Positions 2,006 to 34,017 of a stretch of 56,760 bases of DNA are shown one piece after another. Location: the NCBI GenBank assembly GCA_022819905.1, contig JAJEGJ010000111.1, positions 1 through 56,760 on the forward strand, in the 5' to 3' direction. A program made the translations under genes and the position numbers. Position 1 is the first letter of the stretch. The number at the start of each line of letters is the position of its first letter. The stretch comes from Alphaproteobacteria bacterium (GTDB taxonomy: Bacteria; Pseudomonadota; Alphaproteobacteria; TMED109). The notes beneath the pieces were generated by a model, which was given only the letters and a program-made list of their open reading frames with translations, was not told where the DNA came from and did not search any database.

Positions 2006-3736
2006 TTGAGGATCACATCCATATCCAAGCAGAATGCCGGAGTAAGGTGTTGGCAAGATCTGCCACATGTTTCGCAAACGGAGAAGAAGGTGAAGGACTA
2101 CGCAGAGCAAAGCGGTGCCAACGCGGGGCCAGAAAGCGGCGATGATAAGCGCCGAAAGGACAAGGATGTCGTGGACAACTCTCACCTGTCGGCGGCCGGA
2201 ATAGCGGGGGTCGCCGCAGGAGCGGCCGGCTCAGGTGCGAACTACGCTGACAATGTCTTGTTGGGCGGCACAAGGGGGCACGGGTTCGCAGCAGAGAGCG
2301 CGAACAATCTCTTCGACAGGTTCGCCGGAAAAGACGCCGAGCTCACTGGTCGGGGCAACGAAAGGAACGGGCCAGATCGCATCTTCAATGGTGTGCAAAT
2401 TCAGAGCAAGTATTGCAGCAGCGGGGCGAAATGCGTCGCCGAGTGCTTCGAAAACGGGGAATTTCGGTATTTCAACGCGGATAACTCGCCGATGCAGATC
2501 GAAGTCCCAAGCGATATGTACGAGGGCGCGGTAACAGCTTTGGAGGCCCGCATCGAGAAGGGCCAAGTGAAAGGTGTTTCAGATCCGGCCCAGGCAAGGG
2601 AGATCGTCCGCAAGGGCAATGTCACCTATGCACAAGCCAAGAACATCGCACGCTTCGGAACTGTTGAGAGTCTGTCGTACGATGCAGGCAATGGCGTCAA
2701 ACTGGCCGGCCAAGCGATGGGGATTTCGGCAGCGTTGTCGTTCGCAGTGTCGATCTGGAACGGGGAAGAACCCAGCGTCGCGCTGGAACAGGCCTGCAAG
2801 ACCGGAATGAAGGTTGGGGGAATCGCCTGGATCGGAAGCATCGCCGCCGCGCAACTGGGTCGAACCGGGATCGAACAGGCCCTCCGAGGTTCGACGGATT
2901 GGTTGGTTGGCCAAGCGGGGCCCAAGGCTGCGGCGTGGATTGCCAATAGCTTGCGCTCCGGCAGGTCAATCTACGGGGCAGCGGCCATGAACCATGTCAG
3001 CAAGTTGCTGCGGGGCAATGTCGTGACGGCAATTGCAACGACCGTCGTCCTATCGTCGGCTGACTTCGTTCGAATGTTTAACGGGAGAATGTCTGGTGCG
3101 CAGCTCATTAAGAACGTCACAGTTACGGCGGCGGGCGTGACAGGCGGCACAGCTGGTTGGTTCGGGGGCGCGGCTGTGGGAGGGGCAGTCGGAACAGCAA
3201 TTGCCCCGGGGCTGGGAACAACTGTGGGCGCAATCGTTGGGGGGATCCTTGGTTCGCTAGGAATTGGCACCGCAGCATCCAAGGGCGCGGCGGTCGTTCT
3301 CGACGAGTTCATCGAAGACGACGCCAAGGAAATGCTGGCGATTATGGAGATGGTCTTTGGCGACTTGTGCGAGGTGTATCTATTGACCAAGGATGAAGCG
3401 ATGGCAGTCCTTGAAGATTTTCAAGCCTTGGATTTGCCCAATGCGCTGAGGGACATGTATGCGGCTGATGATCGGCATGAATACGCACGTCGCGTGCTTG
3501 AGCCGCTCATCGAGAAGCGCGTACGGGCAAGGATGCATGTCGCGCTGCCCTCAATAGAGGAAATGTCGAAGGGTACGTTTTCGGTTTTGGAGGAGTTGGC
3601 GGATGAAGCAACGCAGGCTCATGACGAGGGGGGTATTGGAAACGTTACAGGTGTCGTTCATTGGACCCTTGGCTTGATTGGACCCCATTACCGTTCCGCA
3701 GCTTCTGTAACCGACATGGCTAGGACACACGAATGA
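2006..3736 (+). CDS. Glycine-zipper membrane-associated protein of unknown function
   Basis: The frame has no ATG near its 5' end. The longest form starts at TTG 2006 (576 aa). GTG 2090 (548 aa) is a better candidate because a purine-rich AGAAGAAG stretch lies directly upstream. A short Gly/Ala segment at about 62-80 precedes a soluble domain (about 85-225) with conserved-looking blocks such as NNLFDRFAGKDAELTG, NGPDRIFNGVQIQSKYC and ECFENGEFRYFNADN. Hydrophobic segments follow at about 235-255, 270-290 and 335-355, then a long glycine-zipper region at about 370-425, typical of helices that pack or form pores. The C-terminus (about 430-576) is acidic and helical. I have a recollection of similar unannotated proteobacterial proteins but no function. 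It overlaps the GIY-YIG gene by 4 bp (ATGA), so the two are very probably translationally coupled. Lower GC than the conjugation genes suggests separate acquisition. Confidence 0.8.
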   Translation: MRITSISKQNAGVRCWQDLPHVSQTEKKVKDYAEQSGANAGPESGDDKRRKDKDVVDNSHLSAAGIAGVAAGAAGSGANYADNVLLGGTRGHGFAAESANNLFDRFAGKDAELTGRGNERNGPDRIFNGVQIQSKYCSSGAKCVAECFENGEFRYFNADNSPMQIEVPSDMYEGAVTALEARIEKGQVKGVSDPAQAREIVRKGNVTYAQAKNIARFGTVESLSYDAGNGVKLAGQAMGISAALSFAVSIWNGEEPSVALEQACKTGMKVGGIAWIGSIAAAQLGRTGIEQALRGSTDWLVGQAGPKAAAWIANSLRSGRSIYGAAAMNHVSKLLRGNVVTAIATTVVLSSADFVRMFNGRMSGAQLIKNVTVTAAGVTGGTAGWFGGAAVGGAVGTAIAPGLGTTVGAIVGGILGSLGIGTAASKGAAVVLDEFIEDDAKEMLAIMEMVFGDLCEVYLLTKDEAMAVLEDFQALDLPNALRDMYAADDRHEYARRVLEPLIEKRVRARMHVALPSIEEMSKGTFSVLEELADEATQAHDEGGIGNVTGVVHWTLGLIGPHYRSAASVTDMARTHE

Positions 3737-4260
3737 ACTTGGAGGAAGCGCTCAGCGCCTCGCATGACCTGACACATGATCGCGTCGCCGAGTTTTGTCA
3801 GTACGTCAACCTGGATGTGGGGGCGGACACAATCTGCTCCTTGCGACTTTCACGAATCGTCACGGTGGGCAGGAACAATGACCGGGATCCACTTGACTTC
3901 CTGAGCGACCGCATAGGCGTCTACGCTTTTCGGCTCCGTAGGCGCGTCATATACGTTGGTGAATGCGGTACCAAGACGAGGAGTGGCAGTCAGGATCTGC
4001 AAGACCGCATATCTCAACATCTCTGTCCGAACGACGCTGGCGCGACGTTGCGCGACAATTGGTACAAATGCCACGGCTGTGACTTCCGAACGTTCCAGAA
4101 AGAAATGCGTCAATGTTGCTTGTGGACCGTTTCGTTTCCCCGCAGTCAGGACCCGGACACCCAGAAGATCGCGCGCCTGGAGCATTTGCTCATTGGAGTG
4201 CTTGGCCCCGAGTACTGTGACGTGCCTGGAAGTCTCAATCAGAACCATATCCATAGGTAA
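3733..4260 (+). CDS. GIY-YIG-like nuclease domain protein
   Basis: This 175-residue protein starts at the ATG overlapping the previous stop (ATGA). The GIY-YIG core is recognisable: GVY at 62-64, VIYVGE at 73-77 (the YIG half), an arginine in LQDRISQHL at about 92, and the glutamate in ARLEHLLIGVLGPEYC at 150. The family's terminal asparagine (usually P-x-Y-N) is replaced here, since the sequence reads PEYCD. GIY-YIG domains cut DNA with one metal ion and occur in UvrC, homing nucleases and restriction enzymes. Several cysteines (CHGC and CC at about 113-129) may bind metal. The pairing with a membrane protein at an integrase-bearing edge suggests mobile or defence cargo, but that is inference. 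Activity is uncertain because of the altered last motif. Confidence 0.7.
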   Translation: MNLEEALSASHDLTHDRVAEFCQYVNLDVGADTICSLRLSRIVTVGRNNDRDPLDFLSDRIGVYAFRLRRRVIYVGECGTKTRSGSQDLQDRISQHLCPNDAGATLRDNWYKCHGCDFRTFQKEMRQCCLWTVSFPRSQDPDTQKIARLEHLLIGVLGPEYCDVPGSLNQNHIHR

Positions 4261-5054
4261 CGGATACGAGGCGGTGCGCGAAGCGCTGAAGGGGAACGAG
4301 GATCAGCGCCCGCCTCCGTAACGAATGGGCCTGCGGTAACATGTGCGACGGCTCATTCTGAGGTGCGGTAACACCGGCGCCGTAGCGGTCGCGTCGGGCC
4401 GCTGGTGCGCGGAGTGTGAAATCCGACCTCTCTGGCTTGCGCGCCGTCCTTCGTTTTGTTACCTCTGCCGCCGGAAGGCGATGCGGAACGCGCTCAGGTG
4501 TCGCGGCCCGGTCGTCTCGCTCAGGCGCCGCGAGGGCTCCAAACCTTTGCGACGACGGCGGTTTCGGTCGACGACGGTGTGCGTGCACGCGTGTCCATCT
4601 GACTCCTTGCGGAGTTGATTTTGGCCACACCCGACGCAGCGAACTGCGAGCGCGCGCATGCGCGCTCTGGCGTGCCCTGACGGGCACTTCAGGCGCCTCT
4701 GGACGCCTCGGCTATGAGGGGCACGTGTATGCTCGCGAGCATACACGCAGAGCCCTGTATTCGCTTGCCCTGCCGCCTTTGTATGCTCCGGAGCATACGC
4801 CGTATGCTCGCGAGCATACGCGCCGAACGGTTTCCGAAGCGGGCAAATCCCGCCCGATCCGCGCCCTGTCCGGGCATTGACACACGCTCTATCGCTGACG
4901 CGCATCGCTCCACCGGCCGCAAACCGGGCCTATTCCGGTGTCGTTTCCGCCCCGCTTCCAGTCGAGTCAGGTGCCGCCTTTGCCAGCAGTCGGGAGCGTT
5001 CTCGGCCGCCGGTGCGGCCGTATCTCGCCGGTCGGGCACCGATCCCGGTGCGTT
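4261..5054. other. Convergent gene-free region, candidate oriT/relaxosome site
   Basis: Nearly 800 bp lie between the stop of the plus-strand GIY-YIG gene and the stop of the minus-strand relaxosome-like gene. Both flanking genes point inward, so the region is not a promoter for either. Apart from three related palindromes (listed separately) I see no coding character. The open frames across it are low-complexity Arg/Ala/Pro translations of GC-rich DNA. The position next to a MobC-like gene and the relaxase makes it the natural place for oriT. No nic site can be assigned by eye. Confidence 0.4.
4725..4820. repeat. Cluster of three perfect palindromes sharing TATGCTC-SS-GAGCATA
   Basis: The palindromes are at 4725-4746 (22 bp, GTGTATGCTC then GCGAGCATACAC), 4781-4798 (18 bp, CCGG centre) and 4801-4820 (20 bp, CGCG centre). 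All share the arms TATGCTC and GAGCATA and differ only in the central two to four bases and the flanks. Centre-to-centre spacings are 54 and 21 bp, close to five and two helical turns, as expected for a protein that binds same-face dimer sites. None is followed by a T-run, which argues against intrinsic terminators. They may be operators, relaxosome-binding sites or a partition-like site. Confidence 0.85.
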
Positions 5055-33941: not shown

Positions 33942-34017
33942 TGGTGCCCAGGGGAGGAATCGAACCACCGACACCGCGATTTTCAGTCGCGTGCTCTACC
34001 AACTGAGCTACCTGGGC
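33942..34017 (-). tRNA. tRNA-Phe(GAA), probable island attachment site
   Basis: This 76-nt gene includes the encoded CCA (33942-33944 complement). The acceptor stem GCCCAGG pairs with CCTGGGC, the D-arm stem is GCTC/GAGC, and the anticodon loop reads CTGAAAA with GAA. The T loop is TTCGATT. The T stem GGTGG/CCTCC has one U-U mismatch at 51:63. The 3' half faces the P4-type integrase, so the 3' end is the likely att core shared with a second copy at the far end of the island. I found no second copy in the window. YacG and maf on the other side are ordinary chromosomal neighbours. Confidence 0.95.

What the first reader, a model, noticed from the sequence alone, without database searches (positions are those of the whole stretch)
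2006..4260. Coupled glycine-zipper membrane protein and GIY-YIG-like protein as an uncharacterised cargo module
Two genes overlap by ATGA, with GC clearly below that of the conjugation operon, beside tandem integrases. The first has a conserved-looking soluble domain, several membrane segments and a long glycine zipper. The second has GVY...YVG...R...E of the GIY-YIG fold but lost the final Asn. A membrane pore-like protein joined to a nuclease is a typical shape of abortive or uptake-blocking defence, but nothing here proves it.
Basis: partly seen in the sequence, partly recalled or inferred. Interest (0 to 1): 0.6.

Follow-up and report, generated by a model that had tools for sequence, protein, structure and literature searches.

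The report
YeeR-family membrane nuclease, mobile cargo
The large gene looks like a relative of the unexplained E. coli protein YeeR, probably a DNA- or RNA-cutting enzyme tied to the cell membrane and carried by mobile DNA; the small gene beside it is a chance companion rather than its fixed partner.

Summary
The two overlapping genes are real and as described. The reading changes. (1) The 'pore-like' protein carries its own predicted nuclease: the soluble domain (about window 2267-2660) has an E..D..QxK motif invariant in 80 of 80 aligned relatives. Its AlphaFold model matches PD-(D/E)XK enzymes in essentially every top row of a structural comparison, each weakly (Z 3-5.5). (2) It belongs to the family of E. 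coli YeeR, an uncharacterised inner-membrane protein, truncated in K-12, with matches in 2560 of 5426 complete E. coli genomes. Relatives occur in very different bacteria, on plasmids and in phages. (3) A motif search found no GIY-YIG neighbour in 93 other loci, so the pair is not a conserved module. The small protein is a probable GIY-YIG relative lacking the final Asn. Best mechanism: a membrane-tethered nuclease that cuts foreign DNA at the envelope, analogous to SNIPE but with another nuclease fold and no DUF4041. The nuclease is well supported. Membrane insertion, orientation and defence are inferred; two relatives with signal peptides keep an exported-toxin reading open. The defence-neighbourhood test was inconclusive.

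The parts
2006..3736 (+). YeeR-family protein ORF (576 aa from TTG; likely start GTG 2090, 548 aa)
   Evidence: GGAG six bases before GTG 2090 by inspection
2267..2660 (+). predicted PD-(D/E)XK nuclease domain; E69, D96, Q105 and K107 (numbered from GTG 2090) invariant in 80 of 80 rows
2663..3061 (+). weakly hydrophobic helices, possible membrane segments
3116..3271 (+). glycine zipper, nearly uncharged; low-confidence part of the model
3272..3619 (+). conserved C-terminal helical domain, net negative across the family
3733..4260 (+). small GIY-YIG-like protein, ATGA overlap with the gene before it, terminal catalytic Asn replaced by Cys

Best explanation
The first gene encodes a member of the YeeR family: a PD-(D/E)XK-type nuclease domain (QxK variant) followed by weakly hydrophobic helices, a glycine zipper and a helical C-terminal domain. 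It most likely sits at the inner membrane, self-restrained, and cuts foreign nucleic acid, most plausibly phage or plasmid DNA entering the cell, so that location marks the target as non-self. The GIY-YIG-like gene behind it is a locally acquired, co-translated companion, perhaps an impaired nuclease or DNA-binding accessory. Shown here: family membership, invariant catalytic-type residues, predicted fold, purifying selection, patchy distribution on mobile DNA. Inferred: nuclease activity, membrane insertion, cytoplasmic orientation, DNA as substrate, defence role.
For: E, D and QxK invariant in 80 of 80 rows spanning very different bacteria at 31-63% identity to the window. E lies on the first helix, D before strand 2, QxK on strand 3 of the model, the order of the PD-(D/E)XK core. 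Top structural rows are PaqCI, CdiA-CT, YaeQ, Hjc, MspJI, XisH, NucS, VRR_NUC, HindIII, FokI, McrC, LmuA and the like; nearly all 50 are PD-(D/E)XK by recalled fold assignment. Foldseek's best rows are also of this class. Purifying selection: dN/dS 0.14-0.38 in 15 pairs of six E. coli copies and 0.02-0.21 in eight other pairs. Patchy: 2 of 385 genomes of the class, 0 of 6 other genomes of the genus. Mobile carriage. A WYL-type cluster within two genes in 8 of 93 loci. In L102 it follows a PADLOC candidate defence protein, PDC-M09B, E 1.2e-211. Precedent for a membrane-bound nuclease with this logic: SNIPE, PMC13190303 (abstract and two sections read).
Against: No structural row of the domain model exceeds Z 5.5, and Foldseek E is 0.17 at best. 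No Pfam or NCBIfam family matches the protein; Pfam scanning of 80 domain sequences gave only scattered weak hits, the commonest SecD_1st in 29 of 80, best E 0.0042. Hydrophobic segments are modest. Two relatives (L091, L096) carry signal-peptide-like N-termini, which would put the nuclease outside. CdiA-CT in the list allows an RNA substrate. The comparison of neighbours with control loci did not show clear enrichment of defence genes. Strong purifying selection is not typical of arms-race sensors.
Confidence: 0.45

Rival explanations
1. An interbacterial or secreted nuclease toxin: the glycine-zipper helices help the nuclease domain cross a membrane of a competitor, and a small downstream gene acts as immunity.
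For: Signal-peptide-like N-termini in L091 and L096; CdiA-CT toxin among the best structural matches; weak, amphipathic-looking hydrophobic segments; a related downstream gene in 7 of 93 loci.
Against: A hydrophobic N-terminal stretch was found in only 10 of 93 members, and six of these look like E. coli-type membrane anchors by inspection. No downstream gene is conserved across the family. No secretion or toxin-delivery marker was identified beside the window gene.
Confidence: 0.2
2. A mobile-element function other than defence: exclusion of rival conjugative elements, or processing of the element's own DNA at the membrane.
For: Lies between integrases and relaxase of an F/TrwC-type conjugative element; relatives on conjugative plasmids and in phages.
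Against: Neighbouring genes vary from locus to locus and no transfer gene recurs beside the family member, and low GC marks it as cargo of other origin.
Confidence: 0.13
3. One reading: a two-component defence module of a membrane pore plus a GIY-YIG nuclease.
For: ATGA overlap implies co-translation; GIY-YIG fold signature with the catalytic Glu kept.
Against: No GIY-YIG neighbour at any other locus by motif; the first protein has its own predicted nuclease; the GIY-YIG protein lacks the final Asn.
Confidence: 0.08
4. A non-catalytic PD-(D/E)XK-like domain that binds nucleic acid and gates the membrane part, killing or silencing the cell on sensing.
For: Glycine zipper with C-terminal domain resembles a gated membrane module by inspection; Q replaces E in the motif.
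Against: The catalytic-type Glu, Asp and Lys are all invariant; QxK occurs in active enzymes such as Mrr (recalled).
Confidence: 0.1

Closest known systems
E. coli YeeR (b2001, CP4-44)
   Same: About 37% identity over 50% of the query to the full-length E. coli gene; same nuclease motif, helices, glycine zipper and C-terminal domain. Described as truncated in K-12 (passages of PMC6480617).
   Different: Full-length E. coli YeeR has an extra N-terminal half of about 400 residues with membrane helices and a Cys cluster (by inspection); it sits between flu and irmA without a GIY-YIG gene.
SNIPE (PD-lambda-1), PMC13190303
   Same: Predicted plan of a nuclease tied to the inner membrane, the location serving as the non-self cue.
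   Different: SNIPE is one protein with a transmembrane segment, DUF4041 and a GIY-YIG nuclease (section 5 read); here the nuclease of the membrane protein is PD-(D/E)XK-like and no DUF4041 was found.
PADLOC PDC-M09B
   Same: Distant similarity in the QxK region and zipper region; found next to a YeeR member in L102.
   Different: True PDC-M09B scores E 1e-211 and the window protein 5e-4; separate family.
PD-(D/E)XK nucleases (Hjc, PspGI, MspJI, CdiA-CT)
   Same: Predicted core and E..D..QxK order.
   Different: No sequence-level match to a named family; fused to glycine-zipper helices.

Membership tests
YeeR family | Homologous nuclease-like domain, helices, glycine zipper and C-terminal domain | tested here: met
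   (full-length E. coli and Klebsiella copies at E 2e-52 or better over query 82-370), aligned; gene identified as yeeR by position and annotation
PD-(D/E)XK superfamily | E..D..(E/Q)xK catalytic-type residues | tested here: met
   Invariant in 80 of 80 rows; strict pattern in 84 of 93 ORFs, 6 more keep it with longer loops, 3 ORF calls begin after it
PD-(D/E)XK superfamily | alpha-beta-beta-beta-alpha-beta core fold | tested here: met
   Domain model pLDDT 84.9, pTM 0.81; essentially all top structural rows belong to it by recalled assignment, each with Z of at most 5.5, so the support comes from the consistency of the list, not from any single row
PD-(D/E)XK superfamily | Metal-dependent cleavage | not testable with these tools
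   Needs biochemistry
GIY-YIG (PF01541) | GIY..YIG motif, Arg, Glu and terminal Asn | tested here: inconclusive
   GVY, YVG, R and E present, Asn absent; 15.2 bits against a cut-off of 22.6; relative L007 passes at 25.9 bits
SNIPE | DUF4041 plus GIY-YIG in one membrane-bound protein | tested here: not met
   No Pfam family in the 576-aa protein; GIY-YIG-like part is a separate gene
PDC-M09 | PDC-M09B full-length match | tested here: not met
   E 4.7e-4, partial, against 1.2e-211 for the true member in L102
Two-gene membrane + GIY-YIG module | Conserved neighbourhood of the two genes | tested here: not met
   Motif search of 1221 ORFs in 94 loci: only the window pair

The most novel reading that the evidence does not exclude
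YeeR proteins are a broad, unrecognised class of membrane-tethered PD-(D/E)XK nucleases that destroy phage or conjugative DNA during entry, a SNIPE-like strategy reached with a different nuclease, with related genes in nearly half of E. coli genomes and broken in K-12.
Probability: 0.3. Interest if true: 0.85.

Novelty: new variant of a known kind. Interest (0 to 1): 0.5.

Why it matters
I found no assigned function for YeeR (listings), although matching genes occur in 2560 of 5426 complete E. coli genomes. Naming four invariant residues as a probable nuclease site turns an orphan membrane protein into one that can be tested with single changes. If it acts on entering DNA, location-based self/non-self discrimination would have arisen more than once.

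Tried and rejected
GIY-YIG as conserved partner: rejected by motif over 94 loci and by a phmmer search of all neighbour ORFs with the window protein, which found only itself. A whole-genome Pfam GIY-YIG search in 40 genomes was not usable for adjacency because contig numbers do not map to the loci; only L020 could be placed by its chromosome coordinates, and no match lay near. The regex is less sensitive than a profile, and Pfam scanning of 78 downstream neighbours (79 rows with the window's own) showed only the 25 commonest of 99 families, GIY-YIG not among them.

Defence-island test: 107 neighbour ORFs around 30 loci against 107 ORFs from arbitrary stretches of the same 30 genomes (119 were listed; I gave 107, so the last control loci are only partly covered). 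Neighbours matched PADLOC models for AriA, HEC-01, Mokosh, Tmn, type IIG and WYL (38 families at E 1e-15, 25 shown). Controls included a type I restriction locus and PD-T4-6-type models (112 families, 25 shown). Control stretches were mostly chosen on contigs with GIY-YIG matches, so they are not random. No conclusion drawn.

Integration-site test: tRNA-Phe at 33942-34017; the 25-base end occurs once in the genome, so the element's borders are not shown. Full-length Foldseek gave no significant match, which led to folding the domain alone. The viral structure library gave the same kind of weak hits. Literature: YeeR or CP4-44, YeeR with nuclease and phage, YeeR with defense and inner membrane, PDC-M09, glycine zipper with anti-phage, and membrane-anchored / restriction endonuclease-like / phage defense / glycine zipper gave, in their listings, no paper that by title or abstract assigns YeeR a nuclease or defence function; only listings were seen apart from PMC6480617, PMC9431211, PMC13190303 and PMC11514479 (passages or sections). 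Weak similarities not relied on: tape measure protein on the zipper (E 0.011), C19orf12-like (E 0.0013), SlyB (E 0.13).

Rows dropped: A4 holds the window and 79 of the 88 loci; L071, L078, L082, L086, L087, L093, L100, L103 and L105 were left out as duplicates, fragments or ORFs starting inside the domain. L010-L012, L014 and L015 were used in searches and tables but not in structure jobs. L013 and L017 (near-copies of L012) were not in the locus table, and L016 had no intact ORF at the anchor.

Full report
Observation. The two ORFs, the ATGA overlap, the GC drop, the integrases upstream and the conjugation genes downstream are all present. The likely start of the first gene is GTG 2090, since GGAG lies six bases before it and the family's conserved N-terminus (..NYADNV..G..RGHGF) begins well after it (inspection).

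Family. tblastn found relatives on a Lactococcus plasmid (48%), a Selenomonas plasmid (36%) and Escherichia/Klebsiella records (about 37%), and in one phage record. The enterobacterial gene lies between Ag43/flu or cah and irmA/DUF905. In K-12 that position holds yeeR, annotated as inner membrane protein, which the literature describes as truncated (passages of PMC6480617). DNA matches are in 2560 of 5426 complete E. coli genomes, 1780 with at least 80% of the query in one place. A profile-guided scan found 128 relatives in species genomes, 80 kept, and 8 viral contigs. The best are 54-66% identical to the window in Alphaproteobacteria, Binatia, Pectobacterium, Enterobacter, Oceanospirillum, Aliarcobacter, Parachlamydiales and Shewanella. 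In the window's own class the family is rare: 2 of 385 genomes, the window's own included. This combination points to horizontal spread.

Nuclease domain. In 80 aligned rows G63-H64-G65, E69, D96-R97, Q105 and K107-Y108 never vary. AlphaFold gives residues 60-190 pLDDT mostly above 90 in the full model, and the domain alone folds with pLDDT 84.9 and pTM 0.81. E69 is on the first helix, D96 precedes the second strand, and Q105-x-K107 ends the third: the PD-(D/E)XK layout (family knowledge, recalled). VIA-align lists PaqCI 5.5, CdiA-CT 5.4, YaeQ 5.2, AF1548 4.7, Hjc 4.7, MspJI 4.6, XisH 4.5, NucS 4.5 and then more of the same class down to rank 50 (class assignment of the rows recalled). Each Z is modest; the uniformity is the argument. 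Foldseek's top rows are PspGI, Hjc, I-Ssp6803I, SPARDA and MspJI, at E 0.17 or worse. No sequence library names the domain.

Membrane part. The helices after the domain are only moderately hydrophobic. Charge is positive in 258-303 and negative in the short loop before it, which fits a cytoplasmic nuclease, but the rest of the pattern is ambiguous. Of 93 members, 10 have a hydrophobic N-terminal stretch; in L091 and L096 it looks like a cleavable signal peptide. Orientation is therefore open.

Selection. dN/dS is 0.14-0.38 across 15 pairs of six E. coli copies and 0.02-0.21 across eight other pairs, one with saturated dS. The protein is under constraint, not decaying.

Neighbours. Across 93 loci the genes within two places of the family member vary: a WYL-type cluster in 8, a cluster that includes Sel1 proteins in 7, a small downstream gene family in 7, a small upstream one in 6. 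GIY-YIG appears only in the window. In L102 a WYL gene, a 281-aa gene and PDC-M09B lie directly before a YeeR member.

GIY-YIG-like protein. It had no plasmid or phage relatives, and none was found in viral contigs. In sampled genomes the convincing relatives by alignment are L007 and L138; other low-scoring places were not convincing (L006 lies in a copper-oxidase-like protein by inspection). Both keep the final Asn that the window protein lacks.

Conclusion. A well-supported predicted nuclease with a probable membrane part and an unproven defence role. I place defence at entry first because of mobile, patchy carriage, constraint, regulator type and the SNIPE precedent (abstract, sections 5 and 9 read), but the direct test of defence-gene enrichment was inconclusive, and an exported toxin remains the main rival.

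Noticed in passing
window 4727-4826: Three copies of an 18-bp palindrome (GTATGCTC, two central bases, GAGCATAC) between the cargo pair and the relaxase, possibly a regulator or transfer-origin site.
   Followed up: partly
window 33942-34017: tRNA-Phe whose 3' end faces the conjugative element, a possible integration site; no second copy of its end in the genome.
   Followed up: partly
L102 231-5993: Operon-like run of WYL regulator, 281-aa glycine-rich protein, PDC-M09B and YeeR-type protein; PDC-M09B shares a D..QxK stretch and zipper, so it may be a distant sister family.
   Followed up: partly
L091 316-1869 and L096 5749-7323: YeeR-family members with signal-peptide-like N-termini, each followed by a related gene that in L096 has a membrane segment.
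   Followed up: partly
L083 5719-7806: YeeR-family protein whose C-terminal part matches PADLOC BnzA (Bunzi), E 8.4e-10.
   Followed up: no
window 3116-3270 region, family profile: Weak profile match of the glycine zipper to a phage tape measure protein in the PDB (9ki1, E 0.011).
   Followed up: no
L020 7386-8312 and L021 7386-8300: A shared downstream gene of about 305 aa beside two of the closest relatives, unrelated to GIY-YIG by motif.
   Followed up: no
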